Positions 1 through 7,323 of a stretch of 7,323 bases of DNA are shown in pieces. Location: positions 1 to 7,323 of the forward strand of contig JAODBP010000349.1 of the NCBI GenBank assembly GCA_025464025.1. The letters run 5' to 3'. Made by a program: the position numbers and the translations under genes. The stretch is from Actinomycetes bacterium. Lineage in GTDB: Bacteria; Actinomycetota; Acidimicrobiia; Acidimicrobiales; CADCSY01. A model generated the notes under the pieces. That model did not search any database, had not been told where the DNA came from, and saw nothing but the letters and a program-made list of their open reading frames with translations. Each line of letters starts with the position of its first letter. The first letter of the stretch is position 1.

Positions 1-343
1 CCACCAGGCGGATCGCGTTGACGGCTTGCAGCCACGCACACACCTCATCCACGCAGAGCTCCGATAGGCCGAGCGAGGCGATCACCGTCTCGATGGCGGC
101 GCGGCGCGCGGTGCGCAGCTCGTCGCCGGCGAGGAGCTGGAACGCGGCCTCGAACTCGGGATCGTCGAGGTACGCGGGGGGCTGGAGCCGACGCAACGCC
201 GGGTCGTCGGGGCTTGCCTCGATGACCTCGTCGAGTTGGGCGAGCAGGCCCCGAAGCGAGTCCCGGCCTTCGTCGGACAGCACGAGGTCGAAGCGACCGT
301 CGCGGCGCCGGCGGACCACCGAAGGCGGGTTGAAGAAGCGCAC
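1..343 (-). CDS. DUF2017 family protein, partial (C-terminus off the left edge)
   Basis: This open frame, absent from simple ATG-based calling, reads leftward from GTG at 343-341 for 114 complete codons and leaves the window without a stop. It begins VRFFNPPSVVRRRRDGRFDL and contains PALRRLQPPAYLDDPEFEAA (about residues 50-70), then a GDELRTARRAA segment and a C-terminal AWLQAVNAIRLV. This pattern of an Arg-rich start, an LRRL.PPAY.DDPE core and a helical W..A.N..RLV end matches the actinobacterial DUF2017 family as I remember it. The usual ending (LGTRLxV-like) would lie just outside. No biochemical function is established for the family. The start lies 8 bases after the clpS stop, so the two are probably cotranscribed and translationally coupled; a neighbouring clpS is common in Actinobacteria. 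An in-frame GTG at 379 is possible but would overlap clpS. The family call is fairly secure; the function is unknown. Confidence 0.8.
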   Translation of the reverse strand, partial: MRFFNPPSVVRRRRDGRFDLVLSDEGRDSLRGLLAQLDEVIEASPDDPALRRLQPPAYLDDPEFEAAFQLLAGDELRTARRAAIETVIASLGLSELCVDEVCAWLQAVNAIRLV

Positions 344-351
344 GCGGTCCG

Positions 352-651
352 CTACTCGTCGTGCTGCATGGTGGCCCACAACCCATGCTCGTGGAGGCGG
401 AAGACGTCGAGCTCGGCCTTCTCGCGAGGGCCGGAGGACACCACCGCTCGCCCCTTGTGGTGCACGTCGAGCGTGAGCGACGTGGCCTTCGCCTTCGAAT
501 AGCCGAACAACTTCTGGAAGACGAGGATCACGTACTCGATCGTGTTGATGGGGTCGTTCCACACCAGGACGATCCAGGGGAGGTCGGTGTCGACATCAGC
601 GTCCGGGGACGAGGTCTCCGTCGGCGACGCGAGCGGTCCGGTGGGCGGCAC
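352..651 (-). CDS. clpS: ATP-dependent Clp protease adaptor ClpS
   Basis: ClpS binds proteins with N-degron residues and delivers them to ClpA or ClpC for degradation by ClpP in the cytoplasm. From GTG at 651 the product is 99 residues, the usual length. A flexible acidic N-terminus (1-24) precedes the core PWIVLVWNDPINTIEYV, with the Asn32-Asp33 pair of the N-degron pocket. FQKLFGYSKAKAT and DVHHKGRAVVSSGPREKAEL follow, with the pocket His64 of the family's VHxxG motif, and then HEHGLWATMQ. No in-frame ATG, GTG, TTG or CTG exists between 651 and the conserved core, so this GTG is the shortest credible start. It overlaps the last 56 bases of ctaA in another frame. No clear Shine-Dalgarno site precedes it. 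An in-frame ATG at 756 would lengthen the overlap and add an unconserved Arg/Cys-rich stretch, so I rejected it. DUF2017 follows closely. Confidence 0.93.
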   Translation of the reverse strand: MPPTGPLASPTETSSPDADVDTDLPWIVLVWNDPINTIEYVILVFQKLFGYSKAKATSLTLDVHHKGRAVVSSGPREKAELDVFRLHEHGLWATMQHDE

Positions 652-1615
652 CTGACGATTGTGCCGGACCGGGCACCTGATCCTCCACCGCGGCGTCGAT
701 CGGCCTCTGCATGTGCAGCGCGACCTGCAGCACGGCGATCCACACCAGGCACGCACCGACGACGTGGAGCCCCACCAGCGCGGGCGGGACGCCGCTGAAG
801 TACTGGGTGTAGCCGAGCGCCGCTTGCAGGGTGAGCACCGTGAGCAGCGCGCGCACCGCTCCCTCGATCGGTCGCCCGGCGTGGTGGCGGCGCAACTGCA
901 CGAGCACCCAGATGGTGGCGCCGAGGAAGGCCAACATCGCCGTGCCGTGGATCCGGGCGGCGTCGTGCGCGTGGATCGGCAGGCGGTCGATCGGCACGCC
1001 CTGGTTCTCGCCGCTGTGAGGTCCCGACCCCGTGACGATCGTGCCCGTGAGGAGGACGATGCCGGCGAGCACCGCCAGCGCGCGGCCCCACGCGAGCAGC
1101 GCGGGCGTGACCACCGGACGTACGGCCACGCCGTCGGGCCGGCCGGCCCGCACGTTCAACACGACCGCATCGAGCAGCAGGGCCATCGACGCCACGAAGT
1201 GCCCTTGGACCACCCACGGGTTCAGGTGCGACACCACCACGAACTTGCCCAGGATGATCTGGGCGACCACGCCGGCCACGAGCCCCCCCGAGAGCCAGGT
1301 GAGGTCGCGTCGCCGCGGCGAGCGCCGCGTCGATGCGAGCACCGCGGCGATCACCACCACCGACACCACGCCGGTGAGCGCCCGGTTGCCGAACTCGATG
1401 TCGGCATGGAGACCGCTGGTGGCCACGAAGTGCTGGTCGGTGCATCGGGGCCAGTCGCTGCAGCCGAGGCCCGAACCGGTGAGCCGCACCGCGGCCCCCG
1501 TGACCACGATCAGGGCGAGCAGCGCCACCGCCAGCAACGTGACCCGCCGGTAGCCCTCGGGCGAGACGGGCCGGCGGATGCGCTCGAGCGCGGCGCCGAG
1601 CGGGCGGGTGGACAC
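596..1615 (-). CDS. ctaA: Heme A synthase (COX15/CtaA family)
   Basis: CtaA is a membrane protein that oxidises the C8 methyl of heme O to a formyl group, giving heme A for aa3-type oxidases. The 339-residue product has about eight TM segments in two four-helix halves. Signature GAAVRLTGSGLGCSDWPRC covers residues 40-58, with Cys52 and Cys58 in the first outer loop. Glu74 lies in IEFGNR. Likely heme-ligand histidines are His139 (VVQGHF), His223 (RIHGTAM) and His284 (GLHVVGA). The second half carries TGSGPHSGE (196-203). The position expected for the first-half His after the Glu is Asn77 here, so only three of the four B. subtilis-type ligands are visible. The start is GTG at 1615, immediately preceded by a -10 hexamer suitable for a leaderless transcript. 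The hydrophilic C-terminus (about 305-339) overlaps clpS. It is divergent from ctaB. Confidence 0.96.
   Translation of the reverse strand: MSTRPLGAALERIRRPVSPEGYRRVTLLAVALLALIVVTGAAVRLTGSGLGCSDWPRCTDQHFVATSGLHADIEFGNRALTGVVSVVVIAAVLASTRRSPRRRDLTWLSGGLVAGVVAQIILGKFVVVSHLNPWVVQGHFVASMALLLDAVVLNVRAGRPDGVAVRPVVTPALLAWGRALAVLAGIVLLTGTIVTGSGPHSGENQGVPIDRLPIHAHDAARIHGTAMLAFLGATIWVLVQLRRHHAGRPIEGAVRALLTVLTLQAALGYTQYFSGVPPALVGLHVVGACLVWIAVLQVALHMQRPIDAAVEDQVPGPAQSSGAAHRTARVADGDLVPGR
658..663 (-). promoter_or_regulatory. Possible leaderless -10 element for clpS inside ctaA
   Basis: On the minus strand CACAAT lies exactly six bases (CGTCAG) before the clpS GTG. This is the same -12 to -7 placement as the TANNNT hexamers before ctaA and ctaB. 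The first base departs from the TA consensus and no -35 is evident. It lies within the ctaA coding region. If real, clpS could be transcribed separately from ctaA as a leaderless mRNA, which would fit its lack of a Shine-Dalgarno sequence. Weak evidence. Confidence 0.25.
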
Positions 1616-1729: not shown

Positions 1730-2626
1730 GTGCTCCAGCCGGCCCCGACGAAACTGCGCCGACGCGCCGCCGGCTACGTCGCCCTCACCAAGCCTCGCAT
1801 CATCGAGCTGCTGCTCGTGTCCACCGTGCCCACCATGGTGGTCGCCAACCACGGCATCCCGTCGGGGTGGCTGATCCTCAACACGATCATCGGCGGCGCC
1901 CTCGCCGCGGGTGGCGCCAACGCCATCAACATGTACGTCGACCGCGACATCGACGCGGTGATGGTCCGGACCAAGAACCGCCCGCTGGTGACCGGCCTCA
2001 TCGCGCCGCGCAACGCCCTGGTGTTCGCCATCTCGCTGGAGGTCCTGGCGTTCGCCTGGTTGTGGGGCTGGGTCAACCTGCTCAGCGCCGTGCTGGGCGT
2101 GGCTGCCTGCCTCTTCTACGTGTTCGTGTACACGCTCTGGCTGAAGCGCACCTCCACCCGCAACATCGTGATCGGCGGGGCCGCCGGGGCCGTGCCCGTG
2201 CTGATCGGGTGGTCCTCGGTCACCAACAGCCTCGGCTGGGCCCCCGTGGTGCTGTTCGCCGTCATGTTCTATTGGACGCCCCCGCACTTCTGGGCGCTGG
2301 CCGTCAAGTACAAGGACGACTACTCGGCGGCCGACGTGCCGATGCTGCCGTCCGTGGCCAGCATGCGGGTCACCTCCGAGCGCATCCTCGGCTACACGCT
2401 GTTCCTCTGGGGGCTGACCCTCGTGTTCGGCCCGGTGGCCGACATGGGCGCCCTCTACCTGGTCGCCGCCACCGTCCTCGGCGGCGTCTTCACGTGGCTC
2501 GCCCTCCGCCTGCTGCGCTCGGAGTCGACCGCGGACGCCATGCGCGTCTTCGGCTGGTCGATCACCTACGTCACGCTCCTCTTCGGCGCCATGGCCGCCG
2601 ACCAGCTCATCCGGTCTGGCTTGTGA
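1730..2626 (+). CDS. ctaB: Heme O synthase (protoheme IX farnesyltransferase)
   Basis: CtaB is an integral membrane prenyltransferase of the UbiA superfamily. It attaches a farnesyl group to the 2-vinyl of heme B to form heme O, the substrate of CtaA. The 298-residue protein is of normal length with about nine TM helices. The early motif LTKPRIIELLLVSTVP (19-34) is typical of the family. The first Asp-rich motif is N67-MYV-D71-RDI-D75 followed by RTKNRPL (80-86), which binds the Mg-diphosphate. The second conserved loop is YWTPPHFWALA (181-191) with KYKDDY and DVPMLP (193-207). GTG at 1730 is chosen because it immediately follows a -10-like hexamer and places the conserved TKPR at the usual distance from the N-terminus. 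Divergent from ctaA and upstream of the oxidase subunit genes, it probably has its own transcript and may read through into them. Confidence 0.96.
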   Translation: MLQPAPTKLRRRAAGYVALTKPRIIELLLVSTVPTMVVANHGIPSGWLILNTIIGGALAAGGANAINMYVDRDIDAVMVRTKNRPLVTGLIAPRNALVFAISLEVLAFAWLWGWVNLLSAVLGVAACLFYVFVYTLWLKRTSTRNIVIGGAAGAVPVLIGWSSVTNSLGWAPVVLFAVMFYWTPPHFWALAVKYKDDYSAADVPMLPSVASMRVTSERILGYTLFLWGLTLVFGPVADMGALYLVAATVLGGVFTWLALRLLRSESTADAMRVFGWSITYVTLLFGAMAADQLIRSGL

Positions 2627-2711: not shown

Positions 2712-4283
2712 ATGGCCATGACCGAGACGAGACCCGCGCCCGAGGCCACGGCCGAGGCGCCGCCGCAGGCTGTCCCGGCCGATCCCGCAGGGCTGGCCGG
2801 CTGGCTCAGCACCTCCGACCACAAGCGGGTCGGACGGCTGTGGATCGCCACGTCCCTGCTCTTCCTCCTCCTCGGGGGCGTCCTCGTGGCGCTCCTCGGG
2901 ATCGAGGGGACCAAGAGCGGGCTCGACATCTTCGACACGGGCAGCTTCTCCCAGGCCTCGACGCTCAGCACCGAGGCGCTGGTGCTGCTGTTCCTGGCCC
3001 CGCTGTTCCTGGGCATCGCCACCTTCGTGGTGCCGCTGCAGGTCGGCTCGCCCGAGATCGCCTTCCCCCGTGGCTCGGCCACCGCCTACTGGCTCTACCT
3101 GGTCTCGGCCGGCGTGCTGGTGGCGTCGTACCTGGCCGACGGCGGGCAGACCGGTGGCTCCCGCGATGCTGCCGACCTGTGGCTCCTGGCCATGATGGGC
3201 GTGCTCGTCGCCCTCTGCATCGGCCTGGTCAGCGTGCTCACCACCGCCCTCGCCATGCGGGCGCCGGGCATGAGCCTGCTCCGGGCCCCGGCCTTCACCT
3301 GGTCGACGCTCGTCGGCGGCAGCCTCCTGCTGCTGAGCATGCCGGTCCTCGTGGCCGACCTGGCCGACATGTACGTGTCGCACCACTTCGGCGGCGACCT
3401 CGGCGACTACCAGCGCCAGATCGCCTGGATCTGGTCGATCCCGACCGTGTACCTCCTGGCCGTCGGCGCCGTCGGCGTCGCGCTGGAGATCGTGCCGGTC
3501 CTCGCCAAGAACCGCATCAAGCCCTACGAGGCCGCGCTCGTCGTCGTCGGGTTGCTCGGCATCGTCGGCGTCGGGGCCTGGGCCCAGAACGAGAAGACGT
3601 TCGACGACTTCCTCTACGTCGCCATCGGCCTGGCCGCCGTGCTGCCGGCCCTCGCCCTGCTCGGCCTGGTCGGCAACACCCTCCGCGGCGGCAAGCCGGC
3701 CCCGAAGGCCGCCCTGCTCTTCGCCGTCGGCACCGTCCTGCTCCTCCTCCTCGGCGCCGTGGCCGGCGCCCTCGAGTCGATCGACGGCCTGCACCTGCAC
3801 AACACGACCTGGGAGCTGGGCCAGACCCACCTCGTCGTCCTCGGCGCCGGCACCGTCGGTGGCCTCGGGGCGCTGTGGTGGTGGGCGCCGAAGCTCTGGG
3901 GCGTCGAGCTGCCCGAGAGCGCCGGCATCCTCGCCTTCCTCGCCTCGTTCGGCGGCGCCGTGCTGCTGGCTGCCGGCGAGCTCGTCAACGGCCTCAGCAA
4001 CGACCTGCCGCTGGGGGCCCGGGACTTCAGCGGTGACAGCGTGAAGGTGCTGAACGGCATCAGCGCCGCCGGTGGCGTGCTCGTCACCTTGGCTGGCCTG
4101 CTGGTCGTGCTCGTGCTGCTGGGCGCGGCACGGAAGCGCACCCGGGTCGTCACCGCGGACAACCCGTGGGGCGGCTACACGCTGGAGTGGGCGACGACCT
4201 CGCCACCCCCGCCCGCCAACTTCTCGGCGCCGGTCCCGGTCGTCGCCTCCGCCACGCCGCTGCTCGACGAGGTGACCGCCTGA
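2712..4283 (+). CDS. Heme-copper oxidase subunit I-like protein lacking nearly all metal ligands
   Basis: This 523-residue protein has the subunit I architecture but probably no catalytic centre. It keeps WLSTSDHKRVG (31-41), VVPLQVGSPEIAFPR (106-120), AMRAPGMSLLRAPAFTWS (181-198), about 12 TM helices and the C-terminal DNPWGGYTLEWATTSPPP (483-500) typical of the family. By hand alignment the TM2 heme a His is Ser86. The CuB GHPEVY motif is S-I243-PTVY, and the CuB HH pair is Gln292-Asn293. The K-channel Lys is Leu316. In the ligand helix LHDTYFVVAHFH reads LHNTTWELGQTH, so the a3 ligand is Gln371 while His373 and Tyr247 survive. The propionate-binding PRR is SND (429-431). The frame is intact with neighbour-like composition, and it overlaps the next gene by one base, so it is not a decaying pseudogene. 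ATG at 2712 is chosen (2718 is possible); no good Shine-Dalgarno site is seen. Role inferred as structural, assembly or regulatory. Confidence 0.88.
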   Translation: MAMTETRPAPEATAEAPPQAVPADPAGLAGWLSTSDHKRVGRLWIATSLLFLLLGGVLVALLGIEGTKSGLDIFDTGSFSQASTLSTEALVLLFLAPLFLGIATFVVPLQVGSPEIAFPRGSATAYWLYLVSAGVLVASYLADGGQTGGSRDAADLWLLAMMGVLVALCIGLVSVLTTALAMRAPGMSLLRAPAFTWSTLVGGSLLLLSMPVLVADLADMYVSHHFGGDLGDYQRQIAWIWSIPTVYLLAVGAVGVALEIVPVLAKNRIKPYEAALVVVGLLGIVGVGAWAQNEKTFDDFLYVAIGLAAVLPALALLGLVGNTLRGGKPAPKAALLFAVGTVLLLLLGAVAGALESIDGLHLHNTTWELGQTHLVVLGAGTVGGLGALWWWAPKLWGVELPESAGILAFLASFGGAVLLAAGELVNGLSNDLPLGARDFSGDSVKVLNGISAAGGVLVTLAGLLVVLVLLGAARKRTRVVTADNPWGGYTLEWATTSPPPPANFSAPVPVVASATPLLDEVTA

Positions 4284-4882
4284 TGACCGCCCTGGCCCTC
4301 CCGCCGGCTGCCCCCGCGCCCCGCCGCAACGTGGCGCTGGTCGGCACCATGTTCGCCATCGCCGCCGGCGTGATGCTGATGGGCGGCCTGCTGGCCGCCT
4401 ACTTCGCCGCCCGCCAGGTGCACCCGCACGGCAAGCCGTGGGTGCCCGACGGCGTGACGCTGCCGAACGTGGCGCTCGCCGTCACCTACTCGTCGCTGCT
4501 GATGTCGTCGTTCACGGCCCAGTGGATCGTGTCGGCCATCAAGCTCGACGACCGCCGGCAGGCCTACGTGGCCACCGGCCTCACCCTGCTGTTCGGGGCC
4601 GCCTTCATCAACGGCCTCACCTTCTGCTGGACCCAGCTCGGCGCCGGGGCCGGCGACGGGGGCTTCATCGACCGGATGTTCGCCGTCACCGCGGTGCACC
4701 TCCTGCTCGTCGTCGCCGCCATCGTCTACCTCGTCGTGATCGGCTTCCGGGCGCTCGGCGGCCAGTTCGGCCCCCGCAGCTCCGAGGCCGTCGTCGGCGC
4801 CGTGGCGTTCTGGCACTTCATCGTGTTCGCCGGCGTCGCCGTGTGGTGGTGCGTCTGGTTCCTCGAGGGGGGTCCGGGCTGA
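4283..4882 (+). CDS. ctaE: Cytochrome c oxidase subunit III, short 5-TM form, divergent
   Basis: Subunit III stabilises the core oxidase and binds lipids near the D-channel; it carries no metal. The 199-residue product has five TM segments (about 17-43, 62-86, 94-117, 131-156 and 167-194), the short type lacking the first two helices of the mitochondrial form. Recognisable family signatures are MLMGGLLAAYFAAR (31-44) and AFWHFIVFAGVAVWW (175-189) with the conserved Trp177-His178. The TM glutamate usual in the first helix (family pattern SExxxF, the carboxyl equivalent to bovine E90) is Gly29 here, and a second common Glu in the middle helix appears as Cys115. Translation starts at ATG 4283, which overlaps the previous stop (TGATG) and has GAGGTGA seven bases upstream. 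The coupling suggests it works with the ligand-poor subunit I-like protein. I am confident in the family, less so about which subunit I it partners. Confidence 0.85.
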   Translation: MTALALPPAAPAPRRNVALVGTMFAIAAGVMLMGGLLAAYFAARQVHPHGKPWVPDGVTLPNVALAVTYSSLLMSSFTAQWIVSAIKLDDRRQAYVATGLTLLFGAAFINGLTFCWTQLGAGAGDGGFIDRMFAVTAVHLLLVVAAIVYLVVIGFRALGGQFGPRSSEAVVGAVAFWHFIVFAGVAVWWCVWFLEGGPG

Positions 4883-5646
4883 TGACCACCGTTGCCGCCA
4901 GGTTCTGGTTCGCGGTCGCTGCGCTGGCGTTCGTCGGCTTCATCGCTTACGAGCTCGCCAGCTCCGGGGAGTGGTTCGGCTCGTTCGTGCTCATCACGAT
5001 CGTGGTCGTCGCCGGCATGCTCGGCGTGCTCGCCACCGCCGTCCGCGACGGCGACGTCGCCGCCACCGCGTCGGCCGAGATCCCCGTCCGCCGGTCGCTG
5101 CCCGCGGCGTGGCCGGCCCTCGCCGCCGTCGGCGCCGGCACCTCGATCGTCGGGCTCGCCGGTCGCAACGCCCTGCTCTACGTCGGCTTCGGCGTGCTCG
5201 GCTTCGTGCTCATCGAGTGGCTGGTCCAGGCCTGGGCCGAACGGGCCACCGGCGACCTCGAGTACAACCGCGGCCTTCGCCACCGGATCATGTCGCCGGT
5301 CGAGATCCCGCTGCTCGCCATGCTGGTGATCGCCACCTTCCTGATCAGCGCCTCCCGGGTGCTGCTGGCGCTGCCCAAGACCGGCTCGACGATCTTCGCC
5401 ATCGCCGCCGCCGTCGTGGTGCTCGCCGTGGCCTCGCTGTTCGCGGCCAAGCCCCGCCTCGGCTCCTCCGTCCTCGCCGGCGTCCTGGCGCTCGGCGCCG
5501 TGGCCCTCATCGCCGGCGGCATCGCCGGTGGGGTGGCCGGCGAGCGCCACGTGGAGAAGCACCACGAGGAGGGCTCGAGCGCCACCTCGACCGAGACCAC
5601 CACCAGCACCACCGTCAGCTCGACCTCGGCGACGACCACGCCGTGA
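4882..5646 (+). CDS. Unrecognised 7-TM membrane protein with His/Glu motif and Ser/Thr-rich tail
   Basis: I do not recognise a named family. The 254-residue protein has about seven TM segments (roughly 7-25, 33-54, 76-95, 97-117, 141-164, 168-188 and 194-219). A hydrophilic loop, RATGDLEYNRGLRHRIMSPV (121-140), separates the first four from the last three. The last helix is Gly/Ala-rich and runs into ERHVEKHHEE (221-230), followed by a 24-residue tail made almost entirely of Ser and Thr. The His/Glu cluster could bind a metal such as copper, but that is only a guess. The ATG overlaps the subunit III stop (TGATG) and has a GAGGGG Shine-Dalgarno nine bases upstream, and the next gene is subunit II, so it belongs to the oxidase operon. 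A subunit IV-like accessory protein or an assembly factor are the plausible roles. Confidence 0.75.
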   Translation: MTTVAARFWFAVAALAFVGFIAYELASSGEWFGSFVLITIVVVAGMLGVLATAVRDGDVAATASAEIPVRRSLPAAWPALAAVGAGTSIVGLAGRNALLYVGFGVLGFVLIEWLVQAWAERATGDLEYNRGLRHRIMSPVEIPLLAMLVIATFLISASRVLLALPKTGSTIFAIAAAVVVLAVASLFAAKPRLGSSVLAGVLALGAVALIAGGIAGGVAGERHVEKHHEEGSSATSTETTTSTTVSSTSATTTP

Positions 5647-5672: not shown

Positions 5673-6734
5673 ATGACGAAGTCCCCCCGCCTCCGCCGGG
5701 CCGGCCAGGTCGTCCTGGGGTTGGCGCTGACCTTGATCGTGGCCGGGTGCGCGTCGAACGCGCCGCAGGACACGCTCAAGCCGCAGGGCAAGTACGCCCG
5801 CGAGATCGACGACCTGTTCAAGCCGGTCTTCCTCGTCGCCGTGGCCGTGTTCATCCTCGTCGAGGGCATCGTCCTCGTGGCCGTGATCCGGTTCCGCCGG
5901 CACAAGGACGACGAGGACCTGCCGGAGGACTTCCCCGAGCAGGTCCACGGCAACTTCCGGCTCGAGATCGGCTGGACGATCCTCCCGGCGGTGATCCTCG
6001 CCGCCGTGGCCGTGTTCACGATCCCGGTGATCTTCGACCTGAACGCCCACCCGGCCAACTCGATGAACGTCAGCGTCACCGGCCAGAAGTACTGGTGGGG
6101 CTACCAGTACCCGGTGCAGGACGCGTACGGCATCGACAAGGTGATCACCACGGCCAACGAGCTCCACATCCCGGCCGGCAAGGAGATCTACCTCACGCTG
6201 ACGTCGAAGGACGTCATCCACTCCTTCTGGGCGCCCCGCCTCAACGGCAAGCACGACGTCGTGCCCGGCCGGGTCCACACCTGGCTCCTGCAGGCCGACA
6301 AGCCGGGCGTCTACTCCGGCCAGTGCGCCGAGTTCTGCGGCACCTCCCACGCCAACATGCGCCTGAAGGTCGTGGCCCACGACCAGGCCAGCTGGGACAA
6401 GTGGGTCGCCACCATGGAGACCCCGGTGACCAAGCCCACCAGCGGCATGGCGGCCGAGGGCTTCGACCTGTTCCAGACGAAGGGCTGCTCCGGCTGCCAC
6501 AAGGTCGACGGGGAGTGGGACGAGATCGCCAAGGGCAACCCGTCGGCGCCGAACCTCACCAAGCTCTTCACCCGCGACTGCTTCGCCGGCTGCATCTACA
6601 ACCTCGACGATCGCAACGAGCTCGAGGCGTGGCTCCGCAACCCGCAGCGCAAGGCGGGTTCGCTGATGAAGATCGGTCCCCTCTCCGAGGACGAGATCGA
6701 TCGCCTGTACGCCTACCTCCAGACCTTGAAGTAG
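5673..6734 (+). CDS. ctaC: Cytochrome c oxidase subunit II with fused cytochrome c domain (caa3-type), predicted lipoprotein
   Basis: Subunit II accepts electrons at the outer face and passes them through CuA to subunit I. The 353-residue protein starts with a lipoprotein signal ending LIVAGC (Cys26), followed by two TM helices (about 51-73 and 100-121). The cupredoxin domain has the aromatic KYWWGYQYP (139-147) and all CuA ligands: His183 (IHSFW), then C218-A-E220-F-C222-xxx-H226-xx-M229. A C-terminal cytochrome c domain (about 258-353) has the heme motif C272-SG-C275-H276 and a likely axial Met332. Such a fusion is the hallmark of caa3-type oxidases and lets soluble donors be bypassed. Unusual extra cysteines Cys303 and Cys307 (RDCFAGC) lie between the two heme ligands and may form a disulfide. 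Expected to be anchored in the membrane with the catalytic part outside. Canonical subunit I follows after 10 bases. Confidence 0.96.
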   Translation: MTKSPRLRRAGQVVLGLALTLIVAGCASNAPQDTLKPQGKYAREIDDLFKPVFLVAVAVFILVEGIVLVAVIRFRRHKDDEDLPEDFPEQVHGNFRLEIGWTILPAVILAAVAVFTIPVIFDLNAHPANSMNVSVTGQKYWWGYQYPVQDAYGIDKVITTANELHIPAGKEIYLTLTSKDVIHSFWAPRLNGKHDVVPGRVHTWLLQADKPGVYSGQCAEFCGTSHANMRLKVVAHDQASWDKWVATMETPVTKPTSGMAAEGFDLFQTKGCSGCHKVDGEWDEIAKGNPSAPNLTKLFTRDCFAGCIYNLDDRNELEAWLRNPQRKAGSLMKIGPLSEDEIDRLYAYLQTLK

Positions 6735-6744
6735 GGGATTCCCA

Positions 6745-7323
6745 ATGGCACCGAACGACGACGGACCCCTCGAGCTGCCGGCAGGCGACGAGCCCGAACC
6801 GCGCCAGCCCCTCGGCAGCTTCCGCCGGCCGACCTCGACCACGGGCTGGCGCTCGTGGATCACCACGGTCGACCACAAGAAGATCGGCATCATGTACGGC
6901 GCCACGGCGCTGGTGTTCCTGGGCATCGGTGGCCTCGAGGCCCTGATGATCCGGGCCCAGCTGGCCCAGCCCAACGGGCAGGTGCTCAGCCCGGAGGCCT
7001 ACAACCAGGCCTTCACCATGCACGGCACCACGATGGTCTTCTTCGTGATCATGCCGCTGCTGGCGGCCTTCTCGAACTACCTGATCCCGCTCCAGATCGG
7101 TGCCCGTGACGTCGCCTTCCCGCGGCTCAACGCGCTGTCGTACTGGATCTTCCTCTTCGCCGGCCTGTTCGTGTACTCCGGCGTGATCCTCCACGCCATC
7201 CCCGACAACGGCTGGTTCAACTACGCGCCGAACTCGGGCCTGGCCTACAGCCCGGGCCACGGGATCGACTTCTGGGACCTCGGCCTCCAGATCGCCGGCA
7301 TCGCCTCGCTCGTCGGCGCCGTG
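6745..7323 (+). CDS. ctaD: Cytochrome c oxidase subunit I, canonical, partial (C-terminus off the right edge)
   Basis: This is the catalytic subunit that holds heme a and the heme a3-CuB centre where O2 is reduced. Only the first 193 residues are in the window and the frame stays open to the last base. After a hydrophilic Pro/Glu-rich N-terminus come SWITTVDHKKIGIMY (37-51), then FTMHGTTMVFF (90-100) with the low-spin heme a ligand His93, then PLQIGARDVAFPRLNALSYW (115-134). Asp122 and Asn129 match the D-channel entrance residues (R. sphaeroides D132 and N139). The GWFNYAPNSG loop and SPGHGIDFWDLGLQ (169-182) follow. The remaining ligands (CuB His, HH pair, HFH) lie outside the window. ATG at 6745 has AGGGGA six bases upstream. 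In every position I can compare it keeps what the upstream paralogue has lost, so it is presumably the functional subunit. Confidence 0.96.
   Translation, partial: MAPNDDGPLELPAGDEPEPRQPLGSFRRPTSTTGWRSWITTVDHKKIGIMYGATALVFLGIGGLEALMIRAQLAQPNGQVLSPEAYNQAFTMHGTTMVFFVIMPLLAAFSNYLIPLQIGARDVAFPRLNALSYWIFLFAGLFVYSGVILHAIPDNGWFNYAPNSGLAYSPGHGIDFWDLGLQIAGIASLVGAV

What the first reader, a model, noticed from the sequence alone, without database searches (positions are those of the whole stretch)
2712..4283. Full-length oxidase subunit I homologue with almost all heme and copper ligands replaced
Hand alignment to the subunit I family, including the genuine copy starting at 6745, gives the following. 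The heme a His of TM2 is Ser86. The CuB His is Ile243, and the CuB His-His pair is Gln292-Asn293. The heme a3 His is Gln371 and the K-channel Lys is Leu316. The Arg-Arg propionate clamp is Asn430-Asp431, and the D-channel Asp is Glu115. Only His373 (second heme a ligand position), His363 (Mg-site position) and Tyr247 remain. The ligand helix aligns without gaps over 33 residues, so the losses are not alignment artefacts there. The scaffold, flanking motifs and C-terminal DNPWGGYTLEW motif are preserved, which implies selection for structure without catalysis. I do not know of a described role for such a protein. Possible roles are a subunit of an enlarged oxidase, an assembly or heme-delivery factor, or a membrane proton or ion path.
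Basis: partly seen in the sequence, partly recalled or inferred. Interest (0 to 1): 0.82.

Follow-up and report, generated by a model that had tools for sequence, protein, structure and literature searches.

The report
Dead oxidase twin in oxidase operon
Beside the genes of a working oxygen-consuming enzyme, this bacterium and its relatives keep a second, full-size copy of the enzyme's main part that has lost most of the amino acids that hold the metal centres but is still under selection, so it is probably a building block of an enlarged enzyme rather than a second enzyme.

Summary
Confirmed and widened. ORF 2712-4283 (I*) has a full-length A-type oxidase subunit I fold (pLDDT 92; 2.5 A over 492 residues to a M. 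smegmatis oxidase) with no CuB or heme a3 ligand and one of two heme a histidines. It is not a decaying copy. It belongs to a clade (44 of 44 sampled members on one side of a fully supported branch). Among 138 close relatives the CuB histidines are gone, yet 97 keep both heme a histidines; the window's subclade lost one later. dN/dS is 0.10-0.27 in the three closest pairs. The gene sits in a conserved operon: ctaB - I* - III* (degenerate subunit III) - CtaF-like fusion - coxB - coxA - coxC. In 149 genomes of one class, the 27 with the linked coxA type are exactly the 27 with the full-length fusion, and I* was found in all 27. I* distances track those of coxB and coxA. Best explanation (0.6): I* and III* form a non-catalytic half of an enlarged caa3 oxidase, as CydB stands beside CydA. 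That complex is inferred, not shown. Seven searches of an open-access paper library found no description of such a protein.

The parts
596..1615 (-). ctaA, heme A synthase (COX15-CtaA), divergent from the operon
   Evidence: PF02628 E 4.1e-24; same place beside ctaB in most full loci
1730..2626 (+). ctaB, heme O synthase
   Evidence: NF003349 387.9 bits, cut-off 246
2712..4283 (+). I*: full-length subunit I fold without CuB and a3 ligands; Ser86, Ile243, Gln292-Asn293, Gln371; His373 kept
   Evidence: TIGR02891 234 bits, far below its cut-off of 670.75
4283..4882 (+). III*: degenerate subunit III; start codon overlaps the stop of I* by one base
   Evidence: PF00510 29.6 bits, cut-off 23.8; junction
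4882..5646 (+). Seven-helix protein: CtaF-like (subunit IV) N-terminal half fused to a 3-TM part that in some relatives ends in a cupredoxin domain, absent here; start overlaps the stop of III*
5673..6734 (+). coxB: subunit II with CuA motif and a fused cytochrome c (CSGCH)
   Evidence: TIGR02866 196.9 bits, cut-off 147.7; PF00034; motifs
6745..7323 (+). coxA: genuine subunit I, first 193 residues, cut by the window end
   Evidence: PF00115 E 2.9e-41

Best explanation
I* is a permanent, non-catalytic subunit of an enlarged caa3-type cytochrome c oxidase. Shown: a subunit I copy that lost the CuB set, then in most lines the a3 ligand, and in several lines heme a ligands too, has stayed under purifying selection in a fixed operon with a degenerate subunit III (III*), a CtaF-like subunit IV fusion and the working II-I-III genes. 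Inferred: I* with III* and the IV fusion docks on the active II-I-III core, giving a pseudo-symmetric assembly with a working half and a scaffold half, as CydB stands beside CydA in cytochrome bd. The scaffold would hold the oxidase in its oligomeric or supercomplex state and, where a cupredoxin is kept, place that donor near CuA. Lines that keep both heme a histidines may still bind one low-spin heme there; the window's line, with one His, probably binds none, or a lipid or quinone in its place.
For: Full subunit I fold without the sites. 44 of 44 I* rows on one side of a branch with support 100, and the 23 coxA linked to an I* also one clade with support 100. dN/dS 0.10-0.27 in close pairs. 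Gene order I*-III*-IV-coxB-coxA in 20 of 20 chosen loci. In 149 class genomes the 27 with the linked coxA type equal the 27 with the full-length IV fusion, and I* was found in all 27. One-base stop/start overlaps at I*-III* and III*-IV suggest coupled translation. Distances over 24 loci: I*-coxB 0.91, I*-coxA 0.87, coxA-coxB 0.91, I*-ctaB 0.75; with ctaB held constant 0.84, 0.76, 0.84. Precedent: CydB shares the CydA fold, carries no heme and holds ubiquinone-8 at the heme positions (PMC6853902, passages).
Against: No expression, purification or multi-chain model. All genes compared share one operon, so correlated distances do not prove contact. I* evolves much faster than CoxA (mean tree distance 2.13 against 0.66), which also fits a looser role. 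Two more distant I* pairs give dN/dS 0.50 and 0.57. ctaB, an assembly gene, lies in the same operon, so operon membership alone does not make I* a subunit. One extra coxA of the linked type in G144 stands alone (L093).
Confidence: 0.6

Rival explanations
1. I* is an assembly factor: a template or heme A carrier that helps CoxA mature together with CtaA and CtaB and is absent from the finished enzyme.
For: It lies directly behind ctaB, with ctaA divergent. Most close relatives keep both heme a histidines (97 of 138), as a heme carrier might.
Against: The heme a ligands were lost repeatedly while the gene stayed, so heme handling cannot be its general task. It has its own III* partner and follows coxB and coxA in its evolution more than it follows ctaB (0.91 and 0.87 against 0.75).
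Confidence: 0.2
2. I* is a redox part: a single-heme electron wire or store that passes electrons, in some lines from its own cupredoxin, to the working half.
For: Both heme a ligands in 97 of 138 close relatives. L079 and L080 keep both heme a His, the a3 His and the heme a Arg and have a fused cupredoxin with a copper motif.
Against: The window protein has one heme a ligand. Of 28 more distant I* loci readable at both columns, only 3 keep both. The Arg-Arg clamp is gone in the I* rows and the heme a Arg in all but L079 and L080. So it cannot be the general role.
Confidence: 0.12
3. I* with III* forms a separate membrane proton or ion path.
For: Membrane fold kept.
Against: Channel residues are replaced: D-channel Asp is Glu in 80 of 119 rows and K-channel Lys is Leu in 105 of 119; in the wider set the D-channel column varies over many residues, and there is no conserved charged replacement that I recognised.
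Confidence: 0.05
4. I* is a decaying pseudogene or an assembly artefact.
For: Fast evolution and scattered ligand losses.
Against: dN/dS well under 1, one clade, fixed operon in 27 sampled genomes, gap-free ligand helix, confident fold.
Confidence: 0.02

Closest known systems
A-type heme-copper oxidase subunit I (CoxA/CtaD, PF00115, TIGR02891)
   Same: Fold over the whole length, flanking motifs, C-terminal TLEW motif; sequence relative at E 6.8e-52.
   Different: CuB and a3 ligands, one heme a ligand, Arg pair and channel residues replaced; scores 234 bits against a cut-off of 670.75.
CydB of cytochrome bd oxidase (PMC6853902, passages)
   Same: A cofactor-poor subunit of the same fold beside the catalytic subunit; a resemblance in kind only.
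   Different: Unrelated protein family; CydA-CydB contact is seen by cryo-EM, I-I* contact is not.
CtaF, subunit IV of actinobacterial aa3 oxidase (gene at 4882-5646)
   Same: Profile positions 5-111 match the mycobacterial polypeptide 4 over most of its 139 residues; PF12270 in 3 of 64 members.
   Different: Fused to a further 3-TM part, with a cupredoxin in some relatives; the match is weak, and two designed proteins score between the CtaF chains.

Membership tests
A-type oxygen reductase subunit I, as an enzyme | Subunit I fold | tested here: met
A-type oxygen reductase subunit I, as an enzyme | Three CuB histidines | tested here: not met
   Ile243, Gln292, Asn293; His at the three positions in 0, 0 and 1 of 138 relatives
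A-type oxygen reductase subunit I, as an enzyme | Heme a3 histidine | tested here: not met
   Gln371; His in 6 of 138 relatives
A-type oxygen reductase subunit I, as an enzyme | Two heme a histidines | tested here: not met
   Ser86 and His373 in the window; both present in 97 of 138 relatives
A-type oxygen reductase subunit I, as an enzyme | K- and D-channel residues | tested here: not met
   Leu316 and Glu115
Subunit III (III*, 4283-4882) | Pfam gathering score of PF00510 | tested here: met
   29.6 bits, cut-off 23.8
CtaF, subunit IV (4882-5646, N-terminal half) | Homology to CtaF over its length | tested here: inconclusive
Subunit of an enlarged caa3 oxidase | Present in the purified complex | not testable with these tools
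   No biochemical data
Oxidase assembly factor | Needed for assembly but absent from the mature enzyme | not testable with these tools
   No biochemical data

The most novel reading that the evidence does not exclude
This class of bacteria has a two-headed cytochrome oxidase in which a second I-III-IV module, once an oxidase in its own right, has become a heme a-only electron store or wire, fed by its own cupredoxin, in some lines and a bare scaffold in others such as this one. It would be the first heme-copper oxidase that I know of with a catalytic and a dead subunit I in one complex.
Probability: 0.25. Interest if true: 0.88.

Novelty: new variant of a known kind. Interest (0 to 1): 0.72.

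Why it matters
Subunit I is used as a marker of oxygen reduction, and these proteins carry names such as 'cytochrome c oxidase subunit 1' in databases, so oxidase counts may be inflated in these bacteria. If I* is in the complex, the I-II-III core has a natural variant with a dead twin, and the surviving series (CuB lost, then a3, then heme a) is a natural experiment on which residues of the fold serve structure and which serve chemistry.

Tried and rejected
Pseudogene or sequencing error: rejected by dN/dS, clade structure and operon conservation. Other His taking over the sites: rejected, only His373 lies inside a membrane helix. NO reductase or another ligand-swapped enzyme: the a3-CuB set is missing rather than swapped. 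Own-genome search: none held. Ilumatobacter as named host: the length of a G034 contig (4,830,181 bases) reminded me of I. coccineus from memory; a paper search did not bear it out, so it is not claimed. The other three were about Ilumatobacter (62, 84) and cytochrome bd (65). Passages only were read in PMC8239418, PMC9145763, PMC7618691, PMC6853902 and PMC8756737. Most subscription journals, and preprints, are not in that library. Cupredoxin and heme a: five I* with a partner bearing a cupredoxin domain (L079, L080, and P0104, P0090, P0117, paired with P0213, P0206, P0237 only by equal contig length) all keep both His; the pairing is weak, two of the three paired partners lack the copper motif, and kinship was not controlled, so it is only a lead.

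Full report
What is there. The window holds the left part of a cytochrome oxidase locus: ctaA on the minus strand, then on the plus strand ctaB, the finding (here I*), a subunit III-like gene (III*), a seven-helix protein, coxB with CuA and cytochrome c motifs, and an ordinary coxA cut by the window end. Where a source names the organism of a close relative it is mostly an Acidimicrobiales, Acidimicrobiia or Actinomycetota bacterium; one record, L002, is labelled Acidobacteria.

It is a family. The protein search scored 7999 candidates (a cap), found 912 relatives at E 1e-3 or better and listed 120. I aligned the window with 118 of those 120, leaving out two short ones (P0038, P0103). Of the 119 rows, 90 have the TM2 His, 104 the second heme a His, 97 Gln at the a3 position, and 110 Val, Leu or Ile at the first CuB position. 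With 19 further proteins from a profile search, 138 rows: both heme a His in 97, His at the three CuB positions in 0, 0 and 1, His at a3 in 6. So the usual state among close kin is heme a ligands kept, a3-CuB gone, and Ser86 is a later loss in the window's subclade.

More distant members come from whole genomes. One search lists 32 rows as I*; three (L030, L031, L033) are broken genuine oxidases and are dropped, and L021 is cut by its contig. Of the remaining 28, three keep both heme a His (L002, L079, L080), four have His at a3 (L070, L072, L079, L080), none has His at the first CuB position, one has it at the second (L075) and one at the third (L081). L079 and L080 are least changed: both heme a His, the a3 His and the Arg near heme a remain, and CuB reads R, A, G. 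That Arg is present in 64 of 64 genuine rows and in no other I* row.

One clade. In a tree of 92 rows (44 I*, 48 genuine; 16 Thermaceae rows left out beforehand as near-copies) all I* are on one side of a branch with support 100, with L079 and L080 nearest the genuine side. The 23 coxA linked to an I* are one clade, support 100, with the coxA of L079 and L080 again first to branch (quick search, midpoint root). On that tree the TM2 His needs at least six changes, the second heme a His three, the pair three. The single change for CuB follows from my scoring every I* as lacking the CuB set, which ignores the lone His in L075 and L081. Four I* rows have long branches and unsure places.

Selection. 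NG86 dN/dS of I* is 0.27 (window-L001, 87% identity; ctaB of the same pair 0.30), 0.14 (L071-L073; coxA 0.054) and 0.10 (L076-L078; coxA 0.013). More distant pairs give 0.50 (window-L002) and 0.57 (L083-L084; coxA 0.13). High GC at third positions in some pairs makes these rough.

Operon and co-occurrence. Twenty regions were fetched because one search showed two subunit I matches about 4 to 5 kb apart; all 20 have I*-III*-IV-coxB-coxA, 19 with ctaB in front and 18 with coxC behind (L077 and L079 end first). As those were chosen, I then used the class sample of 149 genomes. The profile of the linked coxA gives 28 genes in 27 genomes at 993.8 bits or more, the next at 940.7. The IV-fusion profile gives 27 genomes above 200 bits, the next at 58.5. 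The two sets of 27 are the same. I* was found in all 27: on the coxA contig in 23 (in G038 only its last part), and in G001, G015, G026 and G097 on another contig that ends inside the operon. Nine other class loci fetched for comparison have coxB-coxA-coxC without I* in the stretch held (L103-L111); the rest of the 122 were not examined one by one. A lone extra coxA of the linked type in G144 is an exception (L093). In 396 genomes drawn from the phylum, the 20 with a full-length IV fusion all bear handles of the class draw; others match only parts of it, up to 94.6 bits. So the operon looks confined to this class in the sample.

The companions. The N-terminal part of the 4882-5646 protein resembles CtaF, subunit IV; each line of evidence is weak alone. 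Its model is of middling quality (pLDDT 74.5, pTM 0.43). The C-terminal part resembles separate proteins with copper-binding domains encoded near coxA in other class genomes. In L079, L080 and 8 of 120 listed relatives the fused protein carries a C-x(2-4)-H-x(2-4)-M copper motif; the window's copy ends before it. III* passes the Pfam subunit III threshold. The simplest history, inferred, is that a second I-III-IV set stood in tandem with II-I-III and lost its chemistry.

How it probably works. The stops and starts of I*-III* and III*-IV overlap by one base. Tree distances of I* over 24 loci (L084 left out for want of ctaB) correlate with coxB 0.91 and coxA 0.87, against 0.91 for coxA-coxB and 0.75 for I*-ctaB; with ctaB held constant the first three are 0.84, 0.76 and 0.84. 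I read this as support for a shared complex, not proof, since the genes share one operon. The proposed complex has a working and a scaffold half; cytochrome bd is the precedent, where CydB shares the fold of CydA and holds ubiquinone-8 at the heme positions (PMC6853902, passages).

Limits. No expression data, purification or multi-chain model. Paper searches cover an open-access library only.

Noticed in passing
L080:7058-7978 (-) and L079:5629-6633 (+): The IV-fusion protein carries a C-terminal cupredoxin domain (PF13473) with a copper motif in these loci; the window's copy ends before it, and in L075 and L084 the tail shows no such Pfam match.
   Followed up: partly
L093:6700-9027 (-): A lone second coxA of the linked type (776-residue frame) in G144, with no coxB, coxC, ctaB or I* recognised in the 14 kb held.
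   Followed up: partly
window 2712-2735 and I* N-termini: An N-terminal TETRP motif lies in the first 20 residues of 76 of 119 close I* rows, in a part that the model leaves disordered; it may be a docking or processing signal.
   Followed up: partly
window 2-756 (-): Minus-strand frames here look like a ClpS-type adaptor and a neighbouring conserved protein; this is from memory of the motifs, with no search made.
   Followed up: no
L033:7983-10405 (+): The coxA of the record named Thermus parvatiensis RL is split over two overlapping frames, a frameshift or sequencing error.
   Followed up: no
L002: A record labelled Acidobacteria bacterium SM_70_13 carries the whole operon and groups with the window's kin in the tree; the label may be wrong.
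   Followed up: no
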